A stretch of DNA of 64,000 nucleotides, from contig CP082962.1 of the NCBI GenBank assembly GCA_021730285.1, forward strand, positions 3,853,501-3,917,500. Direction: 5' to 3'. The stretch's first letter is position 1. Every line of letters starts with the position of its first letter. The translations under genes were made by a program, and so were the position numbers. The stretch is from Desulfovibrio sp. JY (GTDB lineage: Bacteria > Desulfobacterota > Desulfovibrionia > Desulfovibrionales > Desulfovibrionaceae). The notes below the pieces were generated by a model. It was not told the DNA's origin, searched no databases, and saw only the letters and a list, made by a program, of their open reading frames with translations. Below, piece by piece: positions 4,993 through 64,000 of the stretch.

Positions 4993-5564
4993 GCGCTTCG
5001 CCGGGCCTTCAAATATCGGGCTCCCTGCGATGTTGCAAGTCCTCCCCTCGGAGAAGAAAGACGGATTTCGCCTCACAGGAATCCGTCCTTTTCGGTTTAT
5101 TCGGCCGGCTGGGGGGGGAGTGAGTGGGTGGTTTGTTGGGGGGGGTACGTTGGCAAGCTGGTCGGTTCGCTGGTTGGCCGGGGCGGGGGCAGGACGGCCG
5201 CGCGCGGCGCATATTTGAAGAATACGCCTTCGCGTCCGCCCTGCCCCCGCCCCGGCCCTGGTCACACTTCCGTGTCCGGGAGAAATGCCCGCCCGCTACG
5301 CGGATGTCGGGATGATAACCGCCTCGTACGGAAGCAACAGCACGCTATCCTCATTCCAACAGTCAAAACCGCCGACTCTGGCTGTGTGCTCAAAAAATAT
5401 TCAATCTTTCCAAAATGTTGGATCTAAATAATTGAAAGAACCTTTTCTCCTCGGATAAAAAGCCCCCACACCCCTTGGAAAGTTTTTGAAGGGGGGTCCA
5501 GGGGGGAAACTTTTTTCAAAAAGTTTCCCCCCTGGCCGCCGGAGGCATTCCCCCTCCCTCTCCC
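4993..5564. other. Intergenic region: G-rich tract, AT-rich stretch and a long palindrome
   Basis: No convincing gene. From the left it holds a strikingly G-rich stretch at 5111-5189 with two runs of eight G, then an ordinary segment. An AT-rich stretch (about 5370-5450) could hold the promoter for the minus-strand pair below. A perfect 38-base palindrome at 5498-5535 lies just beyond the phosphoglucomutase stop. Long open frames here are products of base skew. Confidence 0.5.
5498..5535. repeat. 38-bp perfect palindrome (family A), 3' of phosphoglucomutase
   Basis: Two perfect 18-base arms separated by two bases. The arms read CCAGGGGGGAAACTTTTT and its exact complement, so a transcript from either strand folds into one long hairpin. 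It lies 30 bases past the stop of the minus-strand phosphoglucomutase gene. The run of T is inside the stem rather than after it, so it is not a textbook intrinsic terminator, although it could stop RNA polymerase or protect RNA 3' ends. The same 18-2-18 architecture recurs at 17371-17408 and 19774-19811. Confidence 0.85.
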
Positions 5565-17352: not shown

Positions 17353-17370
17353 ACAGGAGAATTGAAGCCG

Positions 17371-17532
17371 CTGGGGGAAAACTTTTCTGAAGAAAAGTTT
17401 TCCCCCAGACCCCCTTTCCAAAGACTTTCAATAGGAATGGGATGTTTCCCGCACCACATCGCGAAAGGTAAAAAGTTTAGGATGGGGAGAGCGCGAGAGG
17501 GGAGAACCCTTTTCAAAGGGTTTCCCCTCTCG
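17371..17532. repeat. Composite palindromic element A-B, copy 1
   Basis: A 38-base perfect palindrome (17371-17408, arms CTGGGGGAAAACTTTTCT, two-base loop) is joined by an 84-base spacer to a second, 40-base hairpin (17493-17532) with arms starting GCGAGAGGGG and an internal CCCTTTT/AAAGGG core. The whole unit recurs in the opposite orientation at 19648-19811, with about 90 percent identity even in the spacer. It lies between the convergent ends of the hybrid kinase and dapB, where bidirectional termination would be useful. A third copy starts at 63950. Confidence 0.85.
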
Positions 17533-17563
17533 CACGTTCTTCACGCTTCTCCCCTGCCCTTCC

Positions 17564-19415: not shown

Positions 19416-19827
19416 GGTTGGGCCTTTGGAGCTGCGGCGGGCGGGAAGGCAGGCATGCGGCGCGCAGGCGTTCGCCCGGCCCCGCGTCCTGTCGCGACGG
19501 TTTTCGGAAAATGCGTCCCGGCCCGCCGCCCTGGGTTGCGGTCACGACGCGATATGCGTCAGGGCCGCACCATAGCCCCAAACCGGGATTGTTTCCAGAG
19601 GGTTTGGGGAAGGGCAATGAGGCGGAAAGGAAGAGGATAAAAAAAGTGCGAGAGGGGAAACCCTTTTGCAAAGGGTTCTCCCCTCTCGCGCTCTCCCCTT
19701 CCTAAACTTTTTAACTTGTGCGATGTGGTGCGGGAAACATCTCGTTACTATTGAAAGTCTTTGGAAAGGGGGCCCGGGGGGAAACTTTTCTACAGAAAAG
19801 TTTCCCCCCGGCATGCCTTGCACCCTC
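19416..19827. other. Intergenic region carrying composite palindromic element copy 2
   Basis: The first 230 bases upstream of hypE have no recognisable gene and should hold its promoter, though no clear -35/-10 pair was found. The remainder is the B-A composite element (19648-19811), immediately beyond the cheB stop at 19828. No structural RNA was recognised. Confidence 0.5.
19648..19811. repeat. Composite palindromic element B-A, copy 2 (inverted relative to copy 1)
   Basis: Hairpin B at 19648-19689 (arms GCGAGAGGGG...), an 84-base spacer, then palindrome A at 19774-19811 (perfect 18-base arms CCGGGGGGAAACTTTTCT, two-base loop). Read on the minus strand, it matches copy 1 at 17371-17532 through both palindromes and the spacer (shared segments include CCAAAGACTTTCAATAG and TTTCCCGCACCACATCGC). 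Together the two copies form a 2.4 kb inverted-repeat bracket around dapB and hypE. For the che operon it is the first thing after the cheB stop. Confidence 0.85.
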
Positions 19828-38921: not shown

Positions 38922-39032
38922 GGACTCGCGCGGCCGGAGACGTCGCCACAGGCCCGGGGTCGGCGGCGGCCGCCGTCCATGGCCTGTTCCGCTTACGCCC
39001 TGCCTCCCCGCGCCGGCCCGGATATCCGCCTC

Positions 39033-39452
39033 ATGAATGGCTATTCCACCCTCGTCATCTTTCTGACCGTCTGCGAACTGGCCCTGCTCCTTTTGGTGGT
39101 GCTTTTTTTCTCCCGGCTGCGCCGGTCCGAGGATCTGCTGGCCAAGATGCAGAAAAACCAGGACGGGCTCCTCAAAAAACTCGACTTCAACGCCAGGCTC
39201 GAACAAGAGCTGGTGGGCAGCTTCCGGCAACGGCAGGCGGAGCTGGCCGAGCTCGACCAGAAGCTGGAGCAGCGCCGCGGTGAACTGGAGAAGCTGGTCA
39301 AAAAAGCCGAAGAATGCATCCGGTCACCGGATTTTTTGCGCCAGATCATCCTCAACGGCTCCCGCCGGGGCCAGTCCCCCGTGGCCCTGGCCAAGGCCAC
39401 CGGCCTGTCCCGGGAAGAAGTGGAACTGATCCTGGCCCAGGAAAAGCTGTAA
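39033..39452 (+). CDS. Single-pass membrane protein with coiled coil, flagellar cluster
   Basis: 139 residues from the ATG at 39033; the frame opens earlier (38979) without a ribosome site. One membrane helix (about 6-25), then a long coiled coil (about 30-95) and a C-terminal compact part (SPVALAKATGLSREEVELILAQEKL) that resembles a helix-turn-helix or SMC-associated tip. Resembles small DUF-type proteins found with flagellar export genes. Last gene of the cluster; palindromes follow at once. Confidence 0.6.
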   Translation: MNGYSTLVIFLTVCELALLLLVVLFFSRLRRSEDLLAKMQKNQDGLLKKLDFNARLEQELVGSFRQRQAELAELDQKLEQRRGELEKLVKKAEECIRSPDFLRQIILNGSRRGQSPVALAKATGLSREEVELILAQEKL

Positions 39453-39455
39453 TAG

Positions 39456-39480
39456 GCAGGAGAGGCTCTGCCTCTCCTGC
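39456..39480. repeat. Hairpin after flagellar cluster
   Basis: Inverted repeat with 11-base arms (GCAGGAGAGGC) and a TCT loop, four bases after the stop of the last flagellar-cluster gene. GC-rich but not followed by a T tract, so termination here would be atypical. It precedes the larger composite palindromic element. Confidence 0.6.
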
Positions 39481-39489
39481 ACCTCTCCG

Positions 39490-39823
39490 CCAGGGCGCTG
39501 CCCTGGACCCGCCGGGGGACTTGATGTCCCCCGGACCCCCTTTTACCGGGTTGGGATGGTGAGGTGGGAGTGTGGTCGGGTCAGGTTGGTTTGGTATTGT
39601 CGGACAGCGGGACGCCGTATGTTAGTTGCCGCAATCGGCCCGGCGACACGAGGCGCTCACGCGCCTCGACGCCGGACGCGATTGCGGCAACAACCGCGCC
39701 AGCGGCGAAGCGCCGCATAAAAGACATGAAATAAGGACATTACCCCACCATCAAGAGTTTTTGGGGAGGGTGGGGGTCCGGGGGAGGGAACCCCTTTTTG
39801 CAAAAAGGGGTTCCCTCCCCCGG
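39490..39823. repeat. Composite palindromic element C, copy 1
   Basis: Five modules in order: palindrome CCAGGGCGCTGCCCTGG (39490-39506); hairpin CCGGGGGA...TCCCCCGG with a CTTGATG centre (39512-39534); a 67-base near-palindrome (39625-39691) with ends GTTGCCGCAATC/GATTGCGGCAAC; a GCGCCAGCGGCGAAGCGCCGCA hairpin at about 39697-39718; and a perfect 22-2-22 palindrome (39778-39823) built on CCGGGGGAGGGAACCCC. The same modules occur in the same order, inverted, at 49417-49735. No protein is encoded. Confidence 0.85.
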
Positions 39824-39832
39824 TTCACAACT

Positions 39833-40675
39833 ATGCCATACAGCAACACACAGGCTTTCCGGCGCGGACACAAGGTTGGGCAGACCGTCCAGGGAAGACT
39901 CCTCTCGCCCGGACCCGGAGGCCTTTTCTGGGTGGTGGTGTCCGGCATCAAGCTTCTGGCCAGCCTGGATCACGAGCCCGTGCCCGGTCGCGAATTGACC
40001 TTTCGCATCGAGGCCCTCGAGCCGGAACTGGTTTTAAAGGACATCACCCCGCCGCCCAGTTCCGCCACGGAGCCGGGCCTGCTCCTTGCCGGCATCGCCG
40101 CCGCGCGGACCCGTTTCGAGCGCCACTTGCCCCGATTTGCGCCGCCGCCCTGCCCGCCGCTGGACTTGACCGCCGCGCGTCGTCTTTTCCACGCTTGGCT
40201 GGCTGGCGATACCACCGCGCGCGCGGATTTCAGCGCCGTCCAGGAGCTTTTCCGGCTGGCCCGGACCTTCGTACCCCGCGCCGAGGGGCGTCCGCGCTAC
40301 CTTCCCTGGGTCTTTCCCGGGCTCACCCAGGCCGAAGCCCTGACCGCGCGTCTTTCCCCGGAGGAAGGCGGCCCGGGATTTCGTCTGCGCCTTTTCGGCC
40401 ACCTCCCCAACCTGGGCCCTATCGCCGTCGAGGCCAGCCATCACCCCACCACCCGGGAAGCGCCGGCCCGCACCGTCTACCGGCTCATGCTCGAACGCCC
40501 GCAAGAGGCCGCCGACTGCATGGCCATGCTGGTCGACCTGCGCTTCGGCAAGGCCGTCCTGGCCCCGGCGTGCCTGTCCGCCGGAGCGCTGCCCGCACCG
40601 CTTGCCGCCGGGTTCCTGGCCCGGATCGTGGCCGCAACTTCCCGGCCCTTTACGGGGCTTCGCCTTCGCGTATAA
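39833..40675 (+). CDS. Hypothetical protein, possibly flagellar hook-length-control-like
   Basis: 280 residues from the ATG at 39833, ten bases past the 46-base palindrome. There is no clear ribosome site, so the hairpin may affect initiation. The N-terminal section is beta-rich (GGLFWVVVSG), the middle is Pro/Ala-rich, and the C-terminal part holds LPNLGPIAVEA followed by a hydrophobic strand pattern, faintly like the FliK C-terminal domain. No firm family match. It precedes the UbiD gene by 53 bases. Confidence 0.5.
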   Translation: MPYSNTQAFRRGHKVGQTVQGRLLSPGPGGLFWVVVSGIKLLASLDHEPVPGRELTFRIEALEPELVLKDITPPPSSATEPGLLLAGIAAARTRFERHLPRFAPPPCPPLDLTAARRLFHAWLAGDTTARADFSAVQELFRLARTFVPRAEGRPRYLPWVFPGLTQAEALTARLSPEEGGPGFRLRLFGHLPNLGPIAVEASHHPTTREAPARTVYRLMLERPQEAADCMAMLVDLRFGKAVLAPACLSAGALPAPLAAGFLARIVAATSRPFTGLRLRV

Positions 40676-40728
40676 ATATGGGGACCGGCCGGCGCGGCCC
40701 AATCCACCGACCTCTGGAGCGTTTCCCC

Positions 40729-42174
40729 ATGGCGTACAAGGACTTGCAGGAATTTTTGCGGCTTCTGGAAAAAAAAGGCGAACTGCGGCGCGTAAAGCCC
40801 GAACTGGACCCGTATTTGGAAATCGCCGAGGTCACGGACCGGGTGTCCAAGGCCGTCGGTCCGGCCCTCTACTTCGAACACCCCAAGGGATCACGCTTTC
40901 CGGTGGTCACCAATGCCTTCGGCTCGTTTCCCCGCATGCACCTGGCCCTTGATTGCGACAACCTCGACGCCCTGGGACACCGCATCGACGCCGTGCTGGA
41001 GATGGAAAAACCGGATGGGCTCATCGACAAGCTCAAGATGCTGCCCAAGCTGGCCAAGATGGCCGGCATCTTCCCCAAGACCGTCAATTCCGGCCGCTGC
41101 CAGGATGTCGTTTTGACCGGCGACGACGTGGACCTGTCCCTCCTGCCGGTGCTGACCACCTGGCCCGGCGATGCCGGCCCCTTCATCACCCTGCCCGTGG
41201 TCGTCACCAAGGACCCGGAAAGCGGCAAGCGCAACGTGGGCATGTACCGCATGCAGGTCTTCGACAAGAACACCACCGGCATGCACTGGCACCGCCACAA
41301 GGGCGGGGCCTACCACTACCATCTGGCGGAAAAGCGCGGCGAGCGCCTGCCCCTGGCCGTGGCCATCGGCCCGGACCCGGCCTGCACCTATGCCGCCACC
41401 GCCCCGCTGCCGGACGACATCGACGAATTTCTCTTCGCCGGTTACCTGCGCCAGGCCCCGGTGGAGCTTGTCCAGTGCAAGACCGTGGACTTGCAAGTGC
41501 CGGCCTCGAGCCAGTTCGTGCTGGAAGGCTACGTGGACCCGGGCGAACGCCGCCGCGAGGGGCCGTTCGGCGACCACACCGGCTATTACTCCCTGGCCGA
41601 CGACTATCCCGTATTCCACGTCACGGCGCTCACCCATCGCAAGGACGCCGTCTATCCGGCGACCCTCGTCGGCCCGCCGCCCATGGAGGACTGCTACATG
41701 GGCAAGGCCACCGAACGTCTGTTTTTGCCGCTCATAAAAAAGCAGCTTCCGGAAATCGTGGACATGAGCCTGCCGCTTGAAGGCGTGTTCCACAACTTCT
41801 GTTTCGTCTCCATCGACAAGCGCTATCCCGGCCAGACGCGCAAGATCATGTACGCCATCTGGGGCCTTGGGCAGATGATGTTCACCAAGATCATCGTGGT
41901 GGTCGATGCCGGGGTCAACGTGCAAAATACGTCCGAGGTGCTCTGGCGGCTCGGCAACAATGTCGATCCCCGGCGCGACATCATCATCGTCGACGGGCCT
42001 CTCGACGCCCTGGACCATGCCTCGCCCACGCCTTTTTACGGCGGCAAGATCGGCATCGACGCCACGAAAAAGGGCCCCGAGGAAGGTCATATGCGCGAAT
42101 GGCCCGATTCGCTGGTCATGTCCCGGGAGGTCAAGGGCCGCATCGACGCGCTGTGGAACGAACTGGGGCTGTGA
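40729..42174 (+). CDS. ubiD: UbiD family decarboxylase
   Basis: 481 residues, full UbiD length. The prenyl-FMN-binding and active-site region is recognisable: GMYRMQVFDKNTTGMHWHRHKGG and the EGPFGDHTGYYS segment with the catalytic Glu/Arg set. Family enzymes reversibly decarboxylate aromatic or alpha,beta-unsaturated acids with prenylated FMN. In this group the likely role is a step of menaquinone (futalosine) synthesis, an inference. The ATG follows GGAGCGTTTCCCC. ubiX is not in the window. Confidence 0.88.
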   Translation: MAYKDLQEFLRLLEKKGELRRVKPELDPYLEIAEVTDRVSKAVGPALYFEHPKGSRFPVVTNAFGSFPRMHLALDCDNLDALGHRIDAVLEMEKPDGLIDKLKMLPKLAKMAGIFPKTVNSGRCQDVVLTGDDVDLSLLPVLTTWPGDAGPFITLPVVVTKDPESGKRNVGMYRMQVFDKNTTGMHWHRHKGGAYHYHLAEKRGERLPLAVAIGPDPACTYAATAPLPDDIDEFLFAGYLRQAPVELVQCKTVDLQVPASSQFVLEGYVDPGERRREGPFGDHTGYYSLADDYPVFHVTALTHRKDAVYPATLVGPPPMEDCYMGKATERLFLPLIKKQLPEIVDMSLPLEGVFHNFCFVSIDKRYPGQTRKIMYAIWGLGQMMFTKIIVVVDAGVNVQNTSEVLWRLGNNVDPRRDIIIVDGPLDALDHASPTPFYGGKIGIDATKKGPEEGHMREWPDSLVMSREVKGRIDALWNELGL

Positions 42175-42176
42175 CC

Positions 42177-42767
42177 ATGACCGTGGACAAAGCAATCATC
42201 CGCTGCCCATGGTGCGGCGATCTCGACCTCTACGTACGCTACCACGATACGGAATGGGGCGTGCCGCTGCACGACGACCGGGCGCTGTTCGAGCTGCTCA
42301 TCCTCGAAGGCGCTCAGGCCGGTCTGTCGTGGCTGACCATCCTCAAGCGCCGGGAAGGTTACCGGGCCGCCTACGAGGGTTTCGACCCGGCGCGTGTGGC
42401 CGACTACGACGCGCCAAAGCTCGCCGCCCTGGCGGAGGATGCCCGCATCATCCGCAACAAGGCCAAGATCAAGGCCTCGGTGGCCAACGCCCAGGCATTT
42501 CTCGCCGTCCAGGAGGCCTTCGGCTCCTTTGACGCCTACCTCTGGCGCTTTGTCGACGGACGGCCCATCGTCAACCATTTCTCGGAGTTGCGGCAGGTCC
42601 CCGCCACCACGCCCCTGGCCGAACAGATCAGCCGCGACCTCAAATCCCGGGGATTTTCCTTTGTCGGCCCGACCTGCGTCTACGCCTTTCTCCAGTCGGC
42701 AGGCCTCGTCAACGACCATCTGACCGGCTGTTTCCGCCACAAGGAACTGGCCGGAGCCGTCCGATGA
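42177..42767 (+). CDS. tag: DNA-3-methyladenine glycosylase I
   Basis: 196 residues, normal for Tag. Excises 3-methyladenine from DNA. The zinc snap at the ends is visible: Cys10 in RCPWCG, His23 in YHDTEWG, and the C-terminal GCFRH segment. LILEGAQAGLSWLTILKRR (about 38-56) is the helix-hairpin-helix/active-site core with the conserved Glu and Trp. Start ATG lies two bases after the ubiD stop; its stop overlaps the next gene (ATGA). Confidence 0.94.
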   Translation: MTVDKAIIRCPWCGDLDLYVRYHDTEWGVPLHDDRALFELLILEGAQAGLSWLTILKRREGYRAAYEGFDPARVADYDAPKLAALAEDARIIRNKAKIKASVANAQAFLAVQEAFGSFDAYLWRFVDGRPIVNHFSELRQVPATTPLAEQISRDLKSRGFSFVGPTCVYAFLQSAGLVNDHLTGCFRHKELAGAVR

Positions 42768-43264
42768 CCCAGGGACCGCTTTCCCGCCCGCCGATTTACA
42801 CGCTGGGCCACGACAACCATGACCGGGCCGTCTTCCTGAGCCTGCTCACCCGCCATGGCGTCAACATGCTTATCGACGTGCGGGCCGAGCCCTACTCACG
42901 CCACCTGCCGCATTTTTGCAGGAACGCTCTGACGGCGTCGCTCAAGTCCTGGGGCGTGGGCTATCTTTTTTGCGGCCGCGAACTCGGGGGACGGGGGACG
43001 TCCGTGGTGGACGCTGTGTCGTTTTGTCGAGGCATCGACCGGGTGATCGCGGCTTGGCGGCAGGCCTACCGGCTGGCCCTGGTCTGCGCCGAGGAGGACC
43101 CCAGGCGTTGCCACCGGGCCTGGCGCATCGCTCCGGCGCTGCTTTCCCGGGGTGCCCGGGTGGTGCATATCCGGGGAGACGGTCGGCTCGAACCCCACAC
43201 CCCGGCCTGGGCCGATTATGCCGTTTCCTGTGCGACAGCGATGCCAACGCAAGAGATATCATAG
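42764..43264 (+). CDS. DUF488 family protein
   Basis: 166 residues. Family features: TLGHDNHDRAVFLSLLTRHGVNMLIDVRAEPYSR at the N terminus, GRELGGRG, and CAEEDPRRCHRAWRIAP with a conserved Cys-His pair. DUF488 proteins often adjoin DNA-repair or stress genes, and here it overlaps tag by four bases, consistent with a repair-linked role; the biochemical activity of the family is not established. Confidence 0.88.
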   Translation: MTQGPLSRPPIYTLGHDNHDRAVFLSLLTRHGVNMLIDVRAEPYSRHLPHFCRNALTASLKSWGVGYLFCGRELGGRGTSVVDAVSFCRGIDRVIAAWRQAYRLALVCAEEDPRRCHRAWRIAPALLSRGARVVHIRGDGRLEPHTPAWADYAVSCATAMPTQEIS

Positions 43265-43283
43265 CAATATTGTTAATATTTTA

Positions 43284-43303
43284 ATCATAACCAAGGTTAT
43301 GAT
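43284..43303. promoter_or_regulatory. 20-bp palindrome, candidate operator or weak terminator
   Basis: ATCATAACC and its exact complement separated by AA, in a locally AT-rich stretch (43260-43310) that contrasts with the surrounding GC-rich DNA. It is followed on the plus strand by TTTTTATTT, so it could be a weak intrinsic terminator for the DUF488 transcript. Equally its form fits a dimeric repressor site ahead of the small gene at 43410. Confidence 0.45.
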
Positions 43304-43409
43304 TTTTATTTCGATCAGGCCTTGCCCGCCCGCTTTTGGACAGTTCAAGGTCAAAACCCACACGCGGCAGGCACGACGAAGGCCGCCGGACAGAAAAAGG
43401 AAAGAAGAC

Positions 43410-43667
43410 GTGAGCGAGGACCCCAAGGAGACGCAAGCGCAATGGGTGACGGTGTCGAGCTTTTATCGCCCCGAGGAACCCGAGGCCGGCTTCGAGGATA
43501 TTCTGGCTTCCGAGGAGGCCAGGTGGGCGGACACGGCCAGGCAGGCCGGCCTTGCGCCCAAGGAACATGTCCGGGTGCGACGCGGCGAAGAGGAAGTGAC
43601 CATCGAGGTCAGCCAGGCCCTGGACGCTGTCTTCACGCCCGTCCAGACCTTATGGAAGGCGCAATAA
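43410..43667 (+). CDS. Small acidic protein of unknown function
   Basis: 85 residues from the GTG at 43410, preceded by AAGGAAAGAAGAC. The frame runs open upstream to 43152 but overlaps DUF488 in another frame. Sequence is Glu-rich, with SSFYRPEEPEAGFEDIL, and ends in TPVQTLWKAQ. No domain, signal peptide or Cys. An AT-rich palindrome upstream may regulate it. Confidence 0.5.
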   Translation: MSEDPKETQAQWVTVSSFYRPEEPEAGFEDILASEEARWADTARQAGLAPKEHVRVRRGEEEVTIEVSQALDAVFTPVQTLWKAQ

Positions 43668-44197
43668 AGGGAGGGAGGGGAGAAACGGCGCGAGAGGGGA
43701 AATCCTGTGGAACGAGGGTTCTCCCGAAGAATCGCCACTGCCGTGGAGAGCGCGCCAGGACGCGGTTTCCACCGACAACTCTCTTCCCTGCCTGAAAATA
43801 CTTCCCGCGACACTTGACCTTTCCAGCATTCTCTCTCTACAATTACACGCATGAAGTTTACATCCCCGCTCTGTCCATCCAGTCCGCGCCGTTATGGACG
43901 TCGTCCTGACAGCGTATGGCTCGACGGCTTGGGGAACGCATCCCTGCCGCCCACTTCCGCCTTACTCTCCCGTCTTGACGGGAACGCCGCCGCATTCGCA
44001 TCCGCCGCCGCAGCCGTTGCTGGATAGCCGAGCCGCGCTTCCAGGCGCCCGCTCGGCTGATCCTCGTGATCCGGAACAACTCGTTGGCCTTGGCCATGCA
44101 GTCGCGACCGCCCGCCGCCCCGCCGTTTTACGTGCGGTGCTTCGCCGCCGGCCGTGACGCCGTTCGCTTCCAGAATATCCAGCACGGAGAAAATAGC
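43668..44197. other. Gap with degenerate hairpin B, a sigma-70-like promoter and a long leader
   Basis: Contains a decayed copy of hairpin B near 43690-43733 (one arm GCGCGAGAGGGG, the partner GGGTTCTCCC), then a good promoter at 43814-43843, then about 350 bases of leader before the aminotransferase. A 58-codon open frame (43851-44027, MKFTSPLCPS... ending TAG) begins just after the expected transcription start; it has no ribosome site and no recognisable features. No known riboswitch was recognised in the leader. Confidence 0.5.
43814..43843 (+). promoter_or_regulatory. Sigma-70-like promoter for aminotransferase transcript
   Basis: TTGACC (43814-43819), 18-base spacer, TACAAT (43838-43843); two close matches to the consensus hexamers in GC-rich DNA. 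Transcription would begin near 43850, giving a leader of about 350 bases before the aminotransferase start at 44198. Confidence 0.55.
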
Positions 44198-45553
44198 ATG
44201 TATTTGCCCCAGCCCGCCGACCGCCATCTCCCGGATTCCATGCCCCAGCCGTCGTTTCCCGCCGGCGCGGGCAACTCCTGTCCCATCCCCGGCTTTCGCA
44301 GCGTGCCGCGCACGGGCGTCATCCATGTCATGCACCGCGCCCAGGCGCTCGGCTTCACGTCCGAGCATCCGGAGTGGGCCAACCTGGGCCAGGGCGCCCC
44401 GTCCACTTCCGGGTTGCCCGATGCCCCCCGACGCATCGCCTGCGTCGAGTGCGCCCCCTGCGAACAGGAGTACGCGCCGGTCGCCGGCCGGCAGGATCTG
44501 CGCATGAAGGTGGCCGAATTTTACAACCACTTCCACCGCCAGGGAAAGCGTTCCAAGTACACCTGGCGCAACGTCTGCATCGCGCCGGGCGGACGGGCGG
44601 CGCTCACCCGCGTGGCCGCGGCGCTCGGCAACATCAATCTCGGCCATTTCATTCCGGACTACACGGCCTACGAGGAACTGCTGGCCGTATTTCGCTCCTT
44701 TACCCCGATCCCCATTCTCCTCGATCCCGCAACCGGCTACCGCATGGCGCCGTCCGTGCTGGAGCGCGAAATCGTCAGCCGGGGCCTCGGGGCGATCCTC
44801 ACCTCCAATCCGTCCAACCCCACGGGCCGGCTGGTGGCCGGGGACGAACTGCGGCAGTGGGTGGAGCTTTCCAGAACGTACGATTGCGCCCTGATCATGG
44901 ACGAGTTCTACTCCCATTATGTCTACGGCCGGGACGAGGCGCGGGTTTCGGCCGCGGCATTCGTGGAGGACGTGGACCAGGACCCGGTGATCGTGGTGGA
45001 CGGCGTGACCAAGAACTGGCGCTATCCCGGCTGGCGGGTCGGCTGGATCGTGGGCCCGAGCCCGGTCATCGAGGCCGTGGCCAGCGCCGGGTCGTTTCTG
45101 GACGGCGGCGCGAACCATCCGCTGCAACGCGCGGCCATGGAGTTGCTTTCCCCGGAAGTGGCCGAACGGGAAATCGCGGCCATCAAGGCGGAGTTCGGCC
45201 ACAAGCGGGACTACCTTGTGGGGGAGCTTCTCCGTCTGGGATTCGAGATCGAGGCCGAGCCGGCCGGAGGCTTTTACGTCTGGGCCAGCCTCAAGGGGCT
45301 GCCCGAGGTATTTCGCGACGCCATGGTCTTTTTCGAGAAGGCGCTGGCGGAAAAGGTCATTGTCGTGCCCGGGGCGTTTTTCGACGTGAATCCCGGGCGG
45401 CGGCGACCCCATTCCTGCTACAAGGACCACATCCGGCTGAGCTTCGGGCCGGACATGGAGGTGCTGCGACGCGGCGTGGCCGGACTGACCCGGATGCTTC
45501 GGGGCCAGGCCGTGGGCGCAAAGGACGCGAGAGGTAATGCCGAAGGCTTCTGA
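44198..45553 (+). CDS. PLP-dependent aminotransferase, class I/II fold
   Basis: 451 residues from the ATG at 44198 with GGAG nine bases upstream; the frame is open to 44066. Class I/II signatures are clear: TSNPSNPTG, a DEFYSHYVYG strand with the cofactor-binding Asp and Tyr, and a VTKNWRYPGWRVGW block with Lys272 forming the PLP Schiff base. A C-terminal HIRLSFG strand holds the carboxylate-binding Arg. The substrate is not deducible. The next gene overlaps it by 17 bases, so its product probably acts with it. Confidence 0.85.
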   Translation: MYLPQPADRHLPDSMPQPSFPAGAGNSCPIPGFRSVPRTGVIHVMHRAQALGFTSEHPEWANLGQGAPSTSGLPDAPRRIACVECAPCEQEYAPVAGRQDLRMKVAEFYNHFHRQGKRSKYTWRNVCIAPGGRAALTRVAAALGNINLGHFIPDYTAYEELLAVFRSFTPIPILLDPATGYRMAPSVLEREIVSRGLGAILTSNPSNPTGRLVAGDELRQWVELSRTYDCALIMDEFYSHYVYGRDEARVSAAAFVEDVDQDPVIVVDGVTKNWRYPGWRVGWIVGPSPVIEAVASAGSFLDGGANHPLQRAAMELLSPEVAEREIAAIKAEFGHKRDYLVGELLRLGFEIEAEPAGGFYVWASLKGLPEVFRDAMVFFEKALAEKVIVVPGAFFDVNPGRRRPHSCYKDHIRLSFGPDMEVLRRGVAGLTRMLRGQAVGAKDARGNAEGF

Positions 45554-46262
45554 TCCGCTGGCAAATATCCCTGACCTGCGATCACGGGAAGAAATTGTCT
45601 CCTGGTTGCAGGGTGAGGACGGCTACAGGAAAATACGGGAGATGCGGTTCTCCGATGCAGGGGAAGCTTTTTCCGTGACGTGGGACGAGGTGCATCCCCT
45701 TCCTTCGAAGGGGAATGCGGCGTCCCTGAATCGCTTCGTGTTGGCGCTGCTGCTGGCCGATTGGGCCTGTTACGCCGATGCGGCCGACCGCGAAGACTCT
45801 GCGCATTTACAGACGGTTGTCGCGACGTTTCCCAAAGGTTTTCGGTTGTGGATGGCCAGGGTGCGGGAACGGTGTGTCCCTGTCGGCTACACGGGCTTTC
45901 ATCCCATCGCGAAGGAAACCTTTTCGCTGATGCGCGATGCTCCCGAGCGTATCACCAGCCGGACGCAAATCGCGCCGGAGCGGGCATCGACGGGCGCTCA
46001 CAACTATTTTTATCTCTTCAACATCGGCATCGTGAAACAGTTTCATGGCACCAATGCGAGCCGGGCGCTGGTCAAGGTCCTGGCCAGGGATCTGGCCTCG
46101 ACTCCCAAACGGGGCTTGGCCGCGATCGTCATTTCGCCGGACGGGAAACGGGTGGTCGAGCGGTTCGGGCTGCGCCAATCGGGCTTTATCACCCATGCCG
46201 GGCAGCGTGAACTTGCCTACGTCGGCGAAAGCGACGCCACGCAAAATTCCTGTCGCGCCTGA
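45537..46262 (+). CDS. Hypothetical protein, GNAT-like features, coupled to aminotransferase
   Basis: 241 residues, starting 17 bases before the aminotransferase stop, with GAGAGGT just ahead of the ATG. The central part reads VPVGYTGFHPI, then IVKQFHGTNASRALVKVLARDL and LAAIVISPDGKRVVERFGLRQSGF. That strand/helix order with a final RFGL(x)xxG block recalls GNAT acetyltransferases, but the canonical Q/RxxG/A acetyl-CoA loop is not clear. Base use seems less GC-biased than neighbours. No Rho-independent terminator follows on this strand. Confidence 0.5.
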   Translation: MPKASDPLANIPDLRSREEIVSWLQGEDGYRKIREMRFSDAGEAFSVTWDEVHPLPSKGNAASLNRFVLALLLADWACYADAADREDSAHLQTVVATFPKGFRLWMARVRERCVPVGYTGFHPIAKETFSLMRDAPERITSRTQIAPERASTGAHNYFYLFNIGIVKQFHGTNASRALVKVLARDLASTPKRGLAAIVISPDGKRVVERFGLRQSGFITHAGQRELAYVGESDATQNSCRA

Positions 46263-46388
46263 TCCGCAGCAGCTGGTGGGAAATCTCCCGGGCCGTGGTC
46301 TGCATATCACCCCCCTGCGGCTGATGCGCCTTGTCGGAGTTTCTTTTTTTAACTCCTGCCGGATACTCTGAGAGCTTCCCCTCGACAC

Positions 46389-46425
46389 AAAAACAGGCGG
46401 TCACCCGCAAGGAATGACCGCCTGT
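46389..46425 (-). terminator. Rho-independent terminator of the NifA-like gene
   Basis: Read on the minus strand: an 11-base stem ACAGGCGGTCA/TGACCGCCTGT with an 11-base loop, followed by a TTTTTGT tail. It lies 36 bases beyond the stop of the NifA-like gene and is the clearest conventional terminator in the window. Confidence 0.85.
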
Positions 46426-46460
46426 CAAACAACCAGACGTCGCTGCCCGTACTGAACCGA

Positions 46461-48020
46461 TCAGGCCCGGCTTTTCACCCGTTGCACGGCAACCAGGGAT
46501 TCGAGATTGAACTTCTTGACCCGGTAGCCCATCTGGCGCGGCGTGATGCCGAGTTCCCGGGCCGCCTTGTGCTGGATGCCGCCGCTGCGGCGCAGGGCGT
46601 CGATGATGACGGACTTCTCCAGGCTTTGCAGCGACGGGGAATTTTCGCCGCCCAGCTCGACCTCGTGGCTGCCCTCTTCCCGCGACGGAATGGTCAGATA
46701 GGGCCGGATGAGGTCGGCGTCGATCCGCTCTTTTTCAGCCAGAATCACCAGCCGTTCCACCAGGTTCTCCATCTCCCGGACATTGCCCGGCCAGTCGTAT
46801 TGCTTGAGCACGGCCAGGGCCTCGGTGGAAAAGGTCAGCTTGCGGGCGTATTCCTTGGAGACCTTGTTGAGGAAATGGATAAGCAGGCTCGGGATGTCTT
46901 CCTTGCGGTCCCGAAGCGGCGGGGCGTTGAGCGGAAAAACGTTGAGCCGGTAGTAGAGATCGGGGCGAAACGACCCCTCCTCGGCCAACGCGGCCAGATC
47001 CTTGTTGGTGGCGGCCAGGATGCGCACGTCCGCCTGCCGGGTCTTGTTGCTGCCCAGGCGCTCGAACTCCTTGTCCTGGAGTACGCGCAGCAGCTTGGCC
47101 TGGAGCCCGAGCGGCAGTTCGCCGATCTCGTCGAGAAAAAGCGTGCCCTTGTTGGCCTCCTCGAACCGGCCGGGCTTGGTCTGGTCCGCCCCGGTGAACG
47201 CACCCTTTTCATAGCCGAAGAGTTCCGATTCCAGCAGGGTTTCCGGAATCGAGGCGCAGTTGACCTTGATGAAGGGATAGTCCTTGCGCTCGGAAAGATC
47301 GTGGATGATGCGGCCGATAAGCGTCTTGCCGGTGCCGGACTCGCCAAGGAGCAGCACCGTGGCCCGGGTCGGGGCGACCTTTTCGATCTGGCGCTGCACA
47401 TCCTGCATGGCCAGACTCTTGCCGACGATATAGAGCCCCTGGGATTCCTGGGACAGCTTGTATTTGAGCGAGATGTTTTCCCGCTTGAGATTCTCGACCT
47501 TGGCCTCGTATTTCTGGTTGAGGCTCATGAACTGGGCAATGAGCGTGGCCACGACGGTCAGAAAAGCCACGTCCTCCCCGTAATCCACTTCGTCGCCGAA
47601 AAGCCGGTCCACGTTGAGCACGCCGATGGCCTGCCCGTGCAGGATGATCGGCACTCCGACAAAGGAGATCGTATGGCGCTCGATCTTACGCGACTGGGTT
47701 TTGTCCAGAAAAAGCGGCTCGTTGCGGATGTCCGGCACCACGTAGGGCTGGGCCGTCTGGAAAATGAGACCGGTGACGCCTTCGTCAAGGCCGTAGACGC
47801 CCCGCCGCTTCTCCTCGGCGGACAGCCCCTGGGAAACGCTGATGACAAGCTTGCCCGTGGAGCGGTCGACCAGGGTGATGGTGGCGCGCTTCATGGAAAG
47901 CGTTTCGGCCAGGATACGCAAAATATCCTGGAGCGACTGCTCGAGGTCGAGCGCCTTATCGATGATGCCGCTTATGGCGGAGAGGCAGGAGAGCTGGAGA
48001 TTTAGCGTTTTTGAAGCCAT
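46461..48020 (-). CDS. nifA: NifA-like sigma-54-dependent transcriptional activator (GAF-AAA-Fis)
   Basis: 519 residues. N-terminal GAF domain (about 15-165), AAA+ ATPase with Walker A GESGTGKT (226-233), the sigma-54-contact loop GAFTGA (273-278), Walker [12 protein letters not shown], and a C-terminal Fis-type helix-turn-helix ([20 protein letters not shown]). Domain order matches NifA. The Cys-rich linker of oxygen-sensitive NifA proteins is not evident. No nif gene is in the window, so the target is an inference from the family. Its ATG lies 19 bases inside the end of argH, so it may be carried on the arg transcript. Confidence 0.8.
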
Positions 48021-49384
48021 CGGGTAAGTTCCGCCATCTGTGCGGTCACGGATTCGGGACCCGTGCCGCCGGGTCCGTTACGTCTGGCCACGGCGGTTTC
48101 ATACCGCAGGGCCTCGAAAACATCAGCCTCCATGGCCGGTGAAAACACGCGCAATTCGTCAAGGGTCAATTCTTCGAGCGCCTTGCCCTTGGATTCGGCA
48201 AAGGCCACGGCATGGCCGGTGATGTGGTGGGCCTCCCGAAACGGAACACCCTTGGCCGCCAGATAATCCGCCAGCTCCGTGGCGTTGAGAAAGCCCTGGG
48301 TCAGGGCTTCGCGCATGCGCTCGGGACGAAAGGCCAGCGCGCCAAGCATCCCGGCCATGACCCGAAGCGAGGCCCGCACGGTGTCGTCGGCGTCGAAAAA
48401 CGGCTCCTTGTCTTCCTGCAAGTCACGATTATACGTCAGCGGCAACCCCTTGACAACCGTAAGCAGCCCCATAAGCGAACCATACACCCGCCCCACCCGG
48501 CCGCGCATCAGTTCCGCCGCATCGGGATTTTTTTTCTGCGGCATGATGCTCGATCCCGTGGCGTAGGCATCGGGCAGCGCAACATAACCGAAACGCGGAT
48601 TGGCCCAGAGAATGATCTCCTCGCAAAAGCGGCTCAGATGCGCCATGACCAGCGAAGCGCAAAAAAGGGACTCCAGCACGAAATCGCGGTCCGAGACGGC
48701 GTCCATGCTGTTGGCAAAGGCGTGGGAAAAGCCCACCGTCCGGGCCACCATGCCCGGATCGAGGGGATAGGTCGTGCCGGCCAGGGCCGCCGCGCCAAGG
48801 GGCGATACCTTGACTCTTTTGAGCGCATCCTCGGCCCGCTCGCAGTCGCGCCGCAGCATCCAGGCATAGGCCAGCAGATGATGGGCGAGGCTCACCGGCT
48901 GGGCCGGCTGCATATGTGTGCAGCCGGGCAGCAACGTGTCCTTGTGCTCCCCCGCCCGCTCCAGGAAGACGCCGACAAGCTCCCGCAAAAGCTTGGTCCA
49001 AACCTCCAGGCTCTCGGCCACGTAGAGCCTGAAATCCAGCGCCACCTGGTCGTTGCGGCTGCGGCCGGTATGGAGCTTGCCGCCAAGGGGGCCGATGAGT
49101 TCGGTCAGACGCTGCTCCACATTCATGTGCACGTCCTCGAACTCCACCCGCCAGGGAAAGCCGCCAACCTCGATCTCGTCCAGCACCTGATCCAGGCCAT
49201 ACACAATGCGCTCGGCCTCATCCCCGGTCAAAACGCCGCGTTTGGCCAACATCCGGGCATGCGCCTTGGACCCGGCAATATCCTGCCGGTACATGCGGCG
49301 GTCATAGGAAACCGACTCGCTGTAGGCTTCCATCAAGGCCCCGGTACCTTCGCCAAACCGCCCGCCCCACATTTTGGTGGACAT
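48002..49384 (-). CDS. argH: Argininosuccinate lyase
   Basis: Splits argininosuccinate into arginine and fumarate, the last step of arginine synthesis. 460 residues, standard length. Family signature [12 protein letters not shown] (about residue 277) holds the catalytic serine loop; the [10 protein letters not shown] (about 107) and [10 protein letters not shown] (about 154) motifs are intact. The ATG at 49384 has GGAGGATACACACC upstream, after the palindromic element. The frame is open upstream through that element but is not coding there. Confidence 0.96.
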
Positions 49385-49416
49385 GGTGTGTATCCTCCGG
49401 AGGAGGGGAAGAGGAA

Positions 49417-49735
49417 CCGGGGGAGGGAACCCCTTTTTTGCAAAAAAGGGGTTCCCTCCCCCGGACCCCCACCCTCCCCAAAAAATTCTCAACGGGGTTG
49501 TATAATCCCCTGGTCCTAACGTTCTTCCATGCGGCGCTTCGCCGCTGGCGCACCTTGTCGCCGCAATCGAGTCCGGCGTCGAGGGGCTTTTGCCCCTCGT
49601 GCCGCCGGGCCGATTGCGGCGACAAACGTCCGGAGTCCCGCTTCCCCGCCATGGTCTCGCCCGACCAAAGCCGAGAAGGGGGGACCGGGGGGCATCAAGC
49701 CCCCCGGCGGTGGGGTCCAGGGGAGGCAGAGCCTC
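49417..49735. repeat. Composite palindromic element C, copy 2, between argG and argH
   Basis: Inverted copy of 39490-39823. From the left: a perfect 23-2-23 palindrome (49417-49464); a GCGGCGCTTCGCCGC hairpin (about 49529-49551); a 67-base near-palindrome (49557-49623, ends GTCGCCGCAATC/GATTGCGGCGAC); a CCGGGGGG...CCCCCCGG hairpin with centre CATCAAG; and an arm-rich CCAGGGGAGGC/GCCTCCCCTGG palindrome ending near 49735. In the direction of arg transcription the order equals that of copy 1. It fills nearly the whole 373-base gap inside the arg gene cluster. Confidence 0.85.
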
Positions 49736-49757
49736 CCCTGGCCGCCGGAGGCAATTC

Positions 49758-50951
49758 CTACTTCCCAAGCCCGCGCAGGCGCAAGCCGACCAGCTTGATG
49801 AAGCCGGACGCGTCGGCCTGGTTGTAGATCTCGTCCTTTTCGAAGGTGGCGAGCTTGGGGTTGTAGAGGCTGTTGGGCGACTTGCGGCCGACCGGGTAGG
49901 CTTGGCCCTTGTAAAGCTTGACGCGCACGGTGCCGGTGACGCGGTCGGAGGCTTCGTCGATCATGGCTTGCAGGGCCTTGCGTTCCGGGCCGTACCAGAA
50001 GCCGTTGTAGACCATCTCGGCGTACTTGGGGATCAACCCATCGCGCAGGTGCATGACCTCGCGGTCGAGGCAGATGCCTTCGAGGTCGCGCTTGGCGATA
50101 TGCAGGATGGTGCCGCCCGGGGTCTCGTAGACGCCGCGCGACTTCATGCCGACGAAGCGGTTTTCGACCATGTCGATGCGGCCGATGCCGTGCTTGCCGC
50201 CAAGGGTGTTGAGCAGCTTGATGAGCGACGCCGGCGAAAGCTTTTCGCCGTCAACGGCCACCGGGTCGCCGTGTTCGAAATCGATGGCGATGACGTCCGG
50301 GGTATCCGGGGCTTTCTCCACGGGCACGGTGAGGAGGTAGGTGTCGGGGCCGGGCTCGTTCCAGGGATCTTCCAGCTCGCCACCCTCGAAGCTTAGGTGC
50401 AGCAGATTGCGGTCCATGCTGTGGTCCGAGCCTTTCTTGTCCGAGGGGACGGGGATGCCGTTTTCCTTGGCGAAATTGATAAGGTCGGTGCGCGAGGCGA
50501 AATCCCATTCGCGCCAGGGGGCGATGGTGCGCAGATCGGGGGCCAAAACGCCGGTGGTCAGCTCGAAGCGGACCTGGTCGTTGCCCTTGCCCGTGGCGCC
50601 GTGGGCCACGGCCTGGGCGCCTTCGGCCCGGGCCACCTCGACCAGGCGCTTGGCGATAAGCGGCCGGGCGATGGAGGTGCCGAGCAGGTAGCGGCCTTCG
50701 TAGATGGCCCCGGCCCGCAGCATGGGGAAGATGAAGTCCTTGGCGAATTCCTCGCGCAGGTCGTCGATGTAGGCCTTGGACGCGCCGGTGCGCAGGGCCT
50801 TTTCCTCCAGGCCGTCGAGTTCCTCTTCCTGGCCCAGGTCGCAGGTGACGGTGATGACCTCGCAGTCATACGTCTTCTTGATCCATTTGAGGATGACGGA
50901 GGTGTCGAGACCGCCGGAATAGGCGAGGACGACTTTCTTGATGGCGCTCAT
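49758..50951 (-). CDS. argG: Argininosuccinate synthase
   Basis: Joins citrulline and aspartate with ATP. 397 residues. N-terminal PP-loop [10 protein letters not shown] (residues 9-18), the [13 protein letters not shown] block (about 117-129) and C-terminal helix are intact. The start has AAGGA upstream and lies 21 bases after the argF stop, so the two are co-transcribed. The long palindromic element follows the stop. Confidence 0.96.
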
Positions 50952-63934: not shown

Positions 63935-63949
63935 GAGAAGGACAGCGAT

Positions 63950-64000
63950 GCGAGAGGGGAAACCCTTTGAAAAGGGTTCTCCCCTCTCGCGCTCTCCCCT
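63950..64000. repeat. Hairpin B, start of a third composite A-B element at window edge
   Basis: Inverted repeat with arms starting GCGAGAGGGG and core CCCTTT/AAAGGG at 63950-63990, beginning 16 bases after the chemoreceptor stop. The ten bases after it continue like the spacer of the 19648-19811 element, so a palindrome A is expected just outside the window. Confidence 0.75.

What the first reader, a model, noticed from the sequence alone, without database searches (positions are those of the whole stretch)
39490..49735. Second composite element (about 330 bp, five palindromic modules) in two copies with the same order relative to transcription
39490-39823 and 49417-49735 share five modules in the same order: a CCAGGG palindrome, a CCGGGGG/CTTGATG hairpin, a 67-base near-palindrome with GCCGCAATC/GATTGCGGC ends, a GCGGCGAAGCGCCGC hairpin and a 46-48-base perfect palindrome. 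In both cases the element fills the gap between two codirectional genes and points the same way. The 67-base near-palindrome has the same length in both but diverged inner bases with compensating changes in the arms, suggesting selection on structure. This differs from known short REP/BIME sequences in size.
Basis: seen in the sequence. Interest (0 to 1): 0.75.

Follow-up and report, generated by a model that had tools for sequence, protein, structure and literature searches.

The report
Paired hairpin tags at gene ends
The two similar stretches belong to a family of roughly 250-500-base DNA elements, found so far in one genus of sulfate-reducing bacteria, that sit just after the ends of genes, carry a 20-base hairpin that hardly ever changes and a long palindrome whose sequence changes while its two arms stay matched, and that may mark where genes end.

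Summary
Confirmed and extended. Both copies are real (81% identical) and belong to a dispersed family, element A: 41 copies in the 4.69-Mb genome, 47 held from a sister species, matches in 13 of 14 genomes of the genus, these two included, none in 43 other genera sampled (capped search). A is hairpins M1-M2, spacer, ~67-nt long stem, short hairpin. The 20-mer CGCCAGCGGCGAAGCGCCGC occurs 40 times exactly, twice with one mismatch, twice with two. A second family, B (44 copies), has the same layout. Elements sit at gene 3' ends, none between divergent genes where both neighbours were called. Of 41 A, 21 face a B tail-to-tail; no A:A or B:B. Sites are mostly inherited: 33 of 41 shared with the sister. 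Long stems covary strongly (307 double-changed cells against 101.5 shuffled) with almost no G-U, and can be lost by palindrome deletion, pointing to DNA-level arm copying as well as selection. This genome has no Y1/RAYT transposase. Best reading: BIME-like, host-maintained gene-tail element; function inferred, not shown.

The parts
39456..39480 (+). Copy A, hairpin M1a (GCAGGAGAGGC-TCT-GCCTCTCCTGC); three bases lie between it and the end of the upstream gene (39452)
39490..39506 (+). Copy A, hairpin M1b (CCAGGGCGCTGCCCTGG) followed by ACCC
39512..39534 (+). Copy A, hairpin M2 (CCGGGGGACTTGATGTCCCCCGG) followed by ACCCCC
39535..39624 (+). Copy A, variable spacer
   Evidence: spacers diverge faster than hairpins at shared sites
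39625..39691 (+). Copy A, 67-nt long stem (near-palindrome)
39697..39716 (+). Copy A, 20-mer with hairpin A (CGCCAGCGGCGAAGCGCCGC)
39758..39823 (-). Copy A, module M4 in reverse orientation: TTTTTGGGGAGGG arm plus 46-nt perfect palindrome (39778-39823)
49717..49741 (-). Copy B, hairpin M1
49685..49707 (-). Copy B, hairpin M2 (CCGGGGGGCTTGATGCCCCCCGG)
49624..49684 (-). Copy B, variable spacer
49557..49623 (-). Copy B, 67-nt long stem
49531..49550 (-). Copy B, 20-mer with hairpin A
49417..49484 (+). Copy B, module M4, reversed with respect to the element: 48-nt perfect palindrome 49417-49464 plus arm
38979..39452 (+). Gene upstream of copy A (157 aa, no Pfam match)
39833..40675 (+). Gene downstream of copy A (280 aa, no Pfam match)
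49758..50951 (-). argG (argininosuccinate synthase), upstream of copy B
48002..49384 (-). argH (argininosuccinate lyase), downstream of copy B

Best explanation
The two loci are copies of element A, one of two sister families (A and B) of gene-tail elements found, among the genomes searched, only in Solidesulfovibrio. Each unit is M1-M2 hairpins, spacer, long stem, short hairpin. A and B sit after stop codons in codirectional or convergent gaps, and in convergent gaps are often joined tail-to-tail as A:B. SHOWN: copy number, architecture, gene-end placement, A:B pairing, sharing of sites between species, near-invariance of hairpin A, covariation of the long stem, loss by palindrome deletion at two sites. 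INFERRED: they mark and insulate the 3' ends of transcription units. Transcription past the stop codon would make a stack of hairpins; the invariant hairpin (A or B) would be the specifically recognised signal (protein on RNA or DNA), while only the length and pairing of the long stem matter. INFERRED: the arms stay Watson-Crick complementary largely because replication template switching copies one arm onto the other, with selection discarding broken stems. In convergent gaps two different elements would serve the two strands without forming one giant perfect inverted repeat.
For: Dispersed: 41 A in the own genome, 44 B at 95 bits or more. Placement of A between divergent genes: 0 of 41 own, 0 of 44 G005 and 0 of 50 other occurrences with both neighbours called; the upstream gene runs with the element in 37 of 41 own copies. 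B sites outside intact A:B pairs: 0 of 19 divergent, 16 of 19 follow a gene running with them. Gaps over 90 nt in the window: 4 of 20 divergent. Architecture follows context: own genome, convergent 18 with hairpin B and 1 with M4 of 22, codirectional 10 with M4 and 2 with B of 15 (Fisher p 1.5e-5 on the B/M4 cells); with G005 added 44 and 1 of 49, 18 and 5 of 28. 21 A:B tail-to-tail pairs at 9-35 nt, no A:A or B:B. Shared sites: 33 of 41 with G005, 28 of them by both flanks; mean identity there is hairpin A 99.5%, stem 95.3%, M2 95.1%, against spacer 81.4% and tail 70.8%. The 20-mer: 40 exact, 2 with one mismatch, 2 with two, reversed-pattern control 0. Long stem: 20 of 23 pairs change on both sides, 307 double-changed cells against 101.5 (sd 7.3) shuffled; B replicates this, 138 against 38.8 (sd 5.7).
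Against: No transcript data; no binding factor identified. The terminator scan flagged neither hairpin A nor M2 in either copy. Four of 41 own A copies and 3 of 19 B sites lie after a gene running the other way. If sense RNA were the selected molecule, G-U should be the usual intermediate, as in Bacillus cereus terminators (PMC5381666, abstract); here A-C exceeds G-U (23 against 7; B 7 against 3). Eight of 41 own sites, copy B's included, have no matching G005 copy among those held (not followed, G005 is a draft). One of the five covariation measures, the number of pair types, is not outstanding (48 against 44.3, reached by 50 of 500 shuffles for A; 9 of 500 for B). Slow change at shared sites could partly reflect exchange between copies, although orthologous stems (95.3%) are closer than non-orthologous ones (90.4%).
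Confidence: 0.45

Rival explanations
1. Non-autonomous mobile repeats (MITE- or REP-like): an absent or lost transposase spread them, and gene tails are simply where insertions are tolerated.
For: Dispersed multi-copy family with species-wide sequence types; same distribution as REPs, which lie mainly between unidirectional and convergent ORFs (PMC3733652, section 15); inward-facing end hairpins in other species look like terminal inverted repeats; Y1 transposases occur in 8 of 14 genus genomes; 8 own sites and 14 G005 sites have no counterpart among the held copies.
Against: No Y1 transposase in the own genome nor in 5 other genus genomes, including G004, which has 26 R2 match rows; none of the 5 fetched Y1 loci has hairpin A nearby. 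33 of 41 sites are shared with the sister species. Of 3 G005-only sites followed, 2 were stem deletions inside an element still present in G000 and 1 held other DNA beside a B-like remnant; no clean empty site was seen. Copies with a half-decayed 20-mer are hardly found. Target-site duplications were not tested.
Confidence: 0.3
2. DNA-topology or nucleoid sites: long palindromes extrude or bind gyrase or another protein behind transcribed genes, most strongly between convergent genes.
For: Gene-end and convergent placement; strict Watson-Crick pairing with hardly any G-U; near-symmetric 20-mer that hardly varies. That BIMEs bind gyrase is recalled; that REPs/BIMEs are binding sites for several proteins was seen in the search listing for PMC2817692.
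Against: A purely symmetric DNA site would not need a fixed order and orientation relative to the gene; no binding data.
Confidence: 0.15
3. Ordinary intrinsic terminators: M4 (GGGG-N7-CCCC-T5-6 in the two window copies, readable on both strands) and the other hairpins simply end transcription, in both directions between convergent genes.
For: Placement; M4 of copy B was flagged by the terminator scan on both strands (a consensus match only; 21 sites found in the region against 10.2 in shuffles); convergent copies usually carry ATTTTAAGA-like sequence after hairpin A while codirectional ones more often carry ATGGAAG.
Against: A terminator needs about 40 nt (recalled), not 250-500; M4 of copy A was not flagged; by my pattern M4 was found in only 1 of 49 convergent copies; hairpin A is nearly invariant in sequence and shows no covariation in 46 genus copies, which a terminator stem does not require; G-U is not the main intermediate.
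Confidence: 0.1

Closest known systems
BIME / REP mosaic elements (GTAG super-family)
   Same: Dispersed intergenic palindromes; mostly between codirectional and convergent genes, close to gene ends (PMC3733652, section 15); mosaics of several hairpins; heterodimers favoured over homodimers in most families (PMC3733652 passages).
   Different: Much larger (about 250-500 nt); long stems of 15-23 bp with free sequence; one hairpin nearly invariant; no GTAG tag at hairpin A; no RAYT/Y1 gene found in the genome; layout depends on gene context; two families pair only as A:B in the own genome.
CGTC-tagged REPs
   Same: No dedicated transposase (PMC3733652, abstract passage); hairpin B standing alone is preceded by CGTC.
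   Different: Hairpin A has no CGTC; the CGTC is lost in many A:B composites (GGTC, AGTC); stem length and first base pairs differ from the description in PMC3733652 section 6; part of a far larger element.
MITEs (Correia, NEMIS and the like; recalled)
   Same: A few hundred bp, inverted-repeat-like ends in some species.
   Different: No clean empty site in the three sites followed; internal nearly invariant hairpin; mostly shared sites between sister species.
Intrinsic transcription terminators with compensatory evolution (PMC5381666, abstract)
   Same: Gene-end hairpins with compensated stem changes.
   Different: Little G-U, no long T-tract after hairpin A, an order of magnitude longer.
Template-switch-maintained stems (PMC8794818 and PMC8604942, abstracts)
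   Same: Compensated changes in both arms and occasional inversion of the inner segment: 1 G005 copy for stem B, 1 S. alcoholivorans copy (L139) for stem A.
   Different: Those papers treat RNA genes and yeast coding genes, not a dispersed bacterial gene-end family.

Membership tests
REP/BIME (GTAG) | GTAG tetranucleotide at one end of the hairpin | tested here: not met
   Hairpin A is preceded by CGCCA or similar and followed by AT in the aligned copies, no GTAG (read by eye)
REP/BIME (GTAG) | RAYT (Y1 transposase) in the genome | tested here: not met
   PF01797: 0 in own genome, control rings in 5 of 14; present in 8 of 14 genus genomes, 0 of 5 fetched loci with hairpin A nearby
REP/BIME (GTAG) | Intergenic, between codirectional or convergent genes | tested here: met
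   0 of 41 own A copies between divergent genes; 0 of 19 B sites
REP/BIME (GTAG) | Unit of 20-40 bp, singly or clustered | tested here: not met
   Unit about 250-370 nt; A:B composites match over about 450-490 nt
CGTC REP | CGTC tag, 8-9 bp stem with A-T as first two pairs, CCA tail | tested here: not met
   Hairpin A lacks the tag; hairpin B standing alone has CGTC but a 7-bp stem whose pairs start T-A, C-G (definition)
MITE | Clean empty sites in relatives | tested here: inconclusive
   None at the 3 of 14 G005-only sites followed: 2 stem deletions, 1 other DNA beside a B-like remnant; 11 G005-only and 8 own-only sites not followed
MITE | Target-site duplications | not tested
   No empty site available to define the ends
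Intrinsic terminator | GC hairpin directly followed by a U-tract | tested here: inconclusive
   Only M4 of copy B flagged, on both strands, among the modules of the two copies; hairpin A is followed by ATTTTAAG, ATGGAAG and similar
Intrinsic terminator | Ends transcripts | not testable with these tools
   No transcript data
Described structured RNA (Rfam 15) | Covariance-model match above the gathering score | tested here: not met
   0 in the window; permissive scans gave only sub-threshold hits, mainly eukaryotic miRNA models on the M4 palindrome
BIME-like in function (gyrase or other binding) | Protein binding | not testable with these tools
   Needs ChIP or EMSA

The most novel reading that the evidence does not exclude
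Solidesulfovibrio uses two distinct, mutually exclusive gene-tail tags (A and B), each read by its own sequence-specific factor through an invariant hairpin, and combines them tail-to-tail between convergent genes; the long stems are sequence-free double-stranded modules whose complementarity is renewed by replication template switching rather than by stepwise RNA selection.
Probability: 0.2. Interest if true: 0.75.

Novelty: new variant of a known kind. Interest (0 to 1): 0.55.

Why it matters
Large intergenic mosaics are often explained as RAYT-driven selfish DNA. Here is a family in a genome without a detectable Y1 transposase, mostly inherited in place, with a 20-mer that hardly decays and a layout that follows the direction of the neighbouring genes. 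That makes 'are BIME-like elements host functions or tolerated parasites?' directly testable. It also gives over a hundred natural long palindromes in which to separate selection on structure from template-switch repair, a confounder of covariation evidence for RNA.

Tried and rejected
RAYT-driven REPs: rejected as membership. Known RNA family: no Rfam match at gathering score; permissive hits are mainly generic hairpin matches. Frequent loop inversion as a general explanation: rejected, only 1 of 46 stem-B copies that matched either orientation in G000+G005, and 1 of 62 stem-A occurrences in other species (L139), are inverted; of those 62, 42 matched the forward apical motif and 19 neither. 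Hairpin B as an RNA tetraloop: 18 of 18 B hairpins standing alone and printed (L256, beside a stem-less A, left out) have UNCG-type loops, but the other strand reads C-GNA-G, a stable DNA loop (both loop types recalled), so it does not decide RNA against DNA. A-C over G-U as proof of antisense RNA: 23 against 7 (p 0.005) mixes orthologous copies and shared pairs, left as inconclusive. Literature: no paper on such repeats in Desulfovibrio or Solidesulfovibrio was seen in the listings (held open-access library only; 20 of 4,378 papers listed).

Rows dropped or capped: one search leaves out five pattern-scan loci from other organisms (L090, L113, L126, L129, L138), judged chance coding matches; one search leaves out those five and L100 (a Selenomonadales MAG contig with the 22-mer at its very end, not explained). 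Hairpins with under 95 nt upstream could not enter the core set. One search scored 40 of 268 candidates, searches scored 150 of 10,734 and 7,899, only 26 per genome with stricter filters, so counts may be low and weak distant relatives may be missed. Of 15 hairpins without a perfect 10-bp arm (37 evaluable), I count 9 by eye as stem-less; these come from draft assemblies and may include assembly errors. The single-contig case does not rest on them.


Full report
OBSERVATION. The two stretches are as described. Copy A fills 39453-39832 between two + genes and copy B fills 49385-49757 between argG and argH on the - strand. They align with 81% identity, with the same modules in the same order relative to transcription; exact module coordinates are. 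Both fold far better than shuffled sequence (z -10.7 and -13.9, 0 of 100 shuffles each).

COPY NUMBER. A BLAST of the own genome with copy A found many dispersed places, with 40 of 268 candidates scored. A covariance model R1 from 30 copies (A2) found 41 places in the 4,686,982-base genome, each also seen more weakly on the other strand. In the genus, 13 of 14 genomes match (own included; G007 does not), and one sister species, G005, gave 47 copies that I hold. A genus-wide model R2 (46 sequences), run over 149 genomes of the family with 26 candidates scored per genome, matched 8 genomes, all in this genus (1 of 44 genera).

ANATOMY. Element A is M1 (one or more CC[AG]GGG...CCC[TC]GG-type hairpins followed by ACCC), M2 (in this species usually CCGGGGG-CTTGATG-CCCCCGG followed by ACCCCC), a variable spacer, a ~67-nt long stem, a short junction, then CGCCA-GCGGCG-AAG-CGCCGC (hairpin A). 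Other species keep hairpin A and the order, but the long stem has a different sequence, still palindromic. A second family, B, has the same layout where read, with its own stem and hairpin (GTCGCCCC-nnn-GGGGCGA): 44 copies at 95 bits or more in the own genome. M4, the 46-48-nt palindrome in the window, is a separate module that stands reversed after A or B in many codirectional gaps.

CONTEXT. With a simple codon-usage gene caller trained on 23 window ORFs, the gene pairs around A are: own genome ++ 15, +- 22, -- 4, -+ 0 of 41; G005 ++ 13, +- 27, -- 4, one side uncalled 3, of 47; other species, stem-less copies included, ++ 17, +- 24, -- 9, one side uncalled 12, of 62; no -+ among those with both sides called. 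Nineteen B sites outside intact A:B pairs (one beside a stem-less A): ++ 8, +- 8, -- 3, -+ 0; a twentieth fetched site gave no B by my pattern. In the window, 4 of 20 gaps over 90 nt are divergent, a small baseline. Among codirectional own sites the element points with the genes in 15 of 19 (p 0.019). Architecture follows context. Own genome: of 22 convergent sites 18 carry hairpin B, 1 M4, 3 neither; of 15 codirectional sites 10 carry M4, 2 B, 3 neither (Fisher p 1.5e-5 on the B/M4 cells). G000+G005, whose sites are mostly the same and so not independent: 44 B and 1 M4 of 49; 18 M4 and 5 B of 28; of 8 '--' sites 5 B, 2 M4, 1 neither. In the own genome 21 A and 21 B form tail-to-tail pairs with 9-35 nt between the model hits; no A:A or B:B pair lies within 600 nt. 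The pairs could have spread as ready-made composites, so the pairing need not be a rule of assembly.

INHERITANCE. Comparing flanks, 33 of 41 own sites have a G005 copy at the same site, 28 by both flanks and 5 by one (contig ends or a split site). Copy A's site is among the 33; copy B's is not, but is occupied in G003, G006 and G013 by an element with a different stem (core identity 71-72%). At the 33 sites mean identity is hairpin A 99.5%, stem 95.3%, M2 95.1% (26 pairs), spacer 81.4% (26 pairs), tail 70.8% (23 pairs), flanks 83-86%; non-orthologous copies give stem 90.4%, M2 88.1%, spacer 60.9%, hairpin A 99.3%. Of 14 G005-only sites I followed 3 in the single-contig own genome. At one, G000 has the whole element minus the stem, lost between TCGCC direct repeats. 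At one, 59 nt are missing, taking most of the stem and the CGCCA before the hairpin. At one, about 1.65 kb separates the flanks: a short B-like remnant and AT-rich DNA. So these three differences are decay and replacement, not insertion into empty sites; the other 11, and the 8 own-only sites, were not followed.

CONSTRAINT. The 20-mer CGCCAGCGGCGAAGCGCCGC occurs 40 times exactly, twice with one mismatch and twice with two in the own genome, against none for the reversed control: partly decayed forms are hardly found, the deletion just described being one. In 46 aligned genus copies the six base pairs of hairpin A do not vary, apart from one G-U, although those copies were gathered with a hairpin pattern allowing two mismatches. 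The long stem behaves in the opposite way: 20 of its 23 pairs have double changes, 307 double-changed cells in the whole structure against 101.5 (sd 7.3) in shuffles, and slid controls collapse. Four of five measures exceed all shuffles; the number of pair types does not (48 against 44.3, 50 of 500). B repeats this: 138 against 38.8 (sd 5.7); pair types 9 of 500. So hairpin A is constrained in sequence and the long stem in complementarity.

RNA OR DNA. In 15 outer pairs x 46 sequences, 679 of 690 cells are Watson-Crick, 1 is G-U and 6 are A-C. In 88 copies of the two sister species 2329 of 2376 cells are Watson-Crick, 7 G-U and 23 A-C; in 40 own B stems 1023 of 1040 are Watson-Crick, 3 G-U and 7 A-C. 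At shared sites 26 single and 8 double changes are seen in 889 pair comparisons, against about 0.5 doubles expected if sides changed independently. In Bacillus cereus terminators, selected as RNA, G-U is the most frequent intermediate (PMC5381666, abstract only). Template switching is reported to make and maintain perfect stems (PMC8794818, abstract and opening text) and to homogenise arms and invert spacers (PMC8604942, abstract). Inversions are rare here. I conclude that DNA-level arm copying probably contributes, and that covariation alone cannot prove an RNA function.

MECHANISM. Most likely these are host-maintained gene-tail elements that work like BIMEs: boundary marks with a specifically recognised hairpin and a structural stem, doubled as A:B where two genes meet. 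Placement, sharing of sites and constraint are shown; recognition, termination, insulation or stabilisation are inferred. Against it: no transcript or binding data, no long T-tract after hairpin A, some copies in the opposite orientation, and eight unmatched sites. The mobile-repeat reading remains possible, above all for the origin of the family.

KNOWN KINDS. The distribution resembles that of REPs (PMC3733652, sections 6 and 15 and passages read), but tag, size and transposase tests fail. That paper's main text mentions no Desulfovibrio. Rfam gave no match. It is best called a new variant of the intergenic palindromic-mosaic kind.

Noticed in passing
window 17370-17527 and 19655-19812 (plus 63949-63999): Another intergenic composite: two 158-nt inverted copies (89%), and 51 nt at 17484-17534 match 63949-63999 exactly in inverse orientation. 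It has its own hairpins and looks like a third gene-tail family.
   Followed up: no
window 5478-5552: M4-like module (GGGGGGTCCAGGGGGGAAACTTTTTTCAAAAAGTTTCCCCCCTGGCCGCCGGAGGC) standing without A or B; the same type follows element A in L029 and lies beside A in L019.
   Followed up: partly
G000:C1:1721693-1723342 (L232): About 1.65 kb, mostly strikingly AT-rich and preceded by a short B-like remnant, sits where the sister species has an A:B composite.
   Followed up: no
L237-L254, hairpin B loops: Hairpin B standing alone has UNCG-type loops (18 of 18 printed), whereas in A:B composites the loop is more often AAA, TTT or AAG.
   Followed up: partly
L088, L093, L101, L108, L109, L112, L114, L118, L131, L133: Ten contigs of one draft (isolate D159_maxbin.009) begin or end within about 105 bases of hairpin A, so these elements seem to break short-read assemblies.
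   Followed up: no
L257-L261: Y1 transposase family (PF01797) matches occur in 8 of 14 genomes of the genus, 1-4 each, several with stop codons, none of the 5 fetched near hairpin A.
   Followed up: partly
L100 (Selenomonadales MAG contig, 3934-3955): The 22-mer with hairpin A lies at the very end of a contig filed under another phylum; possibly a misbinned contig.
   Followed up: no
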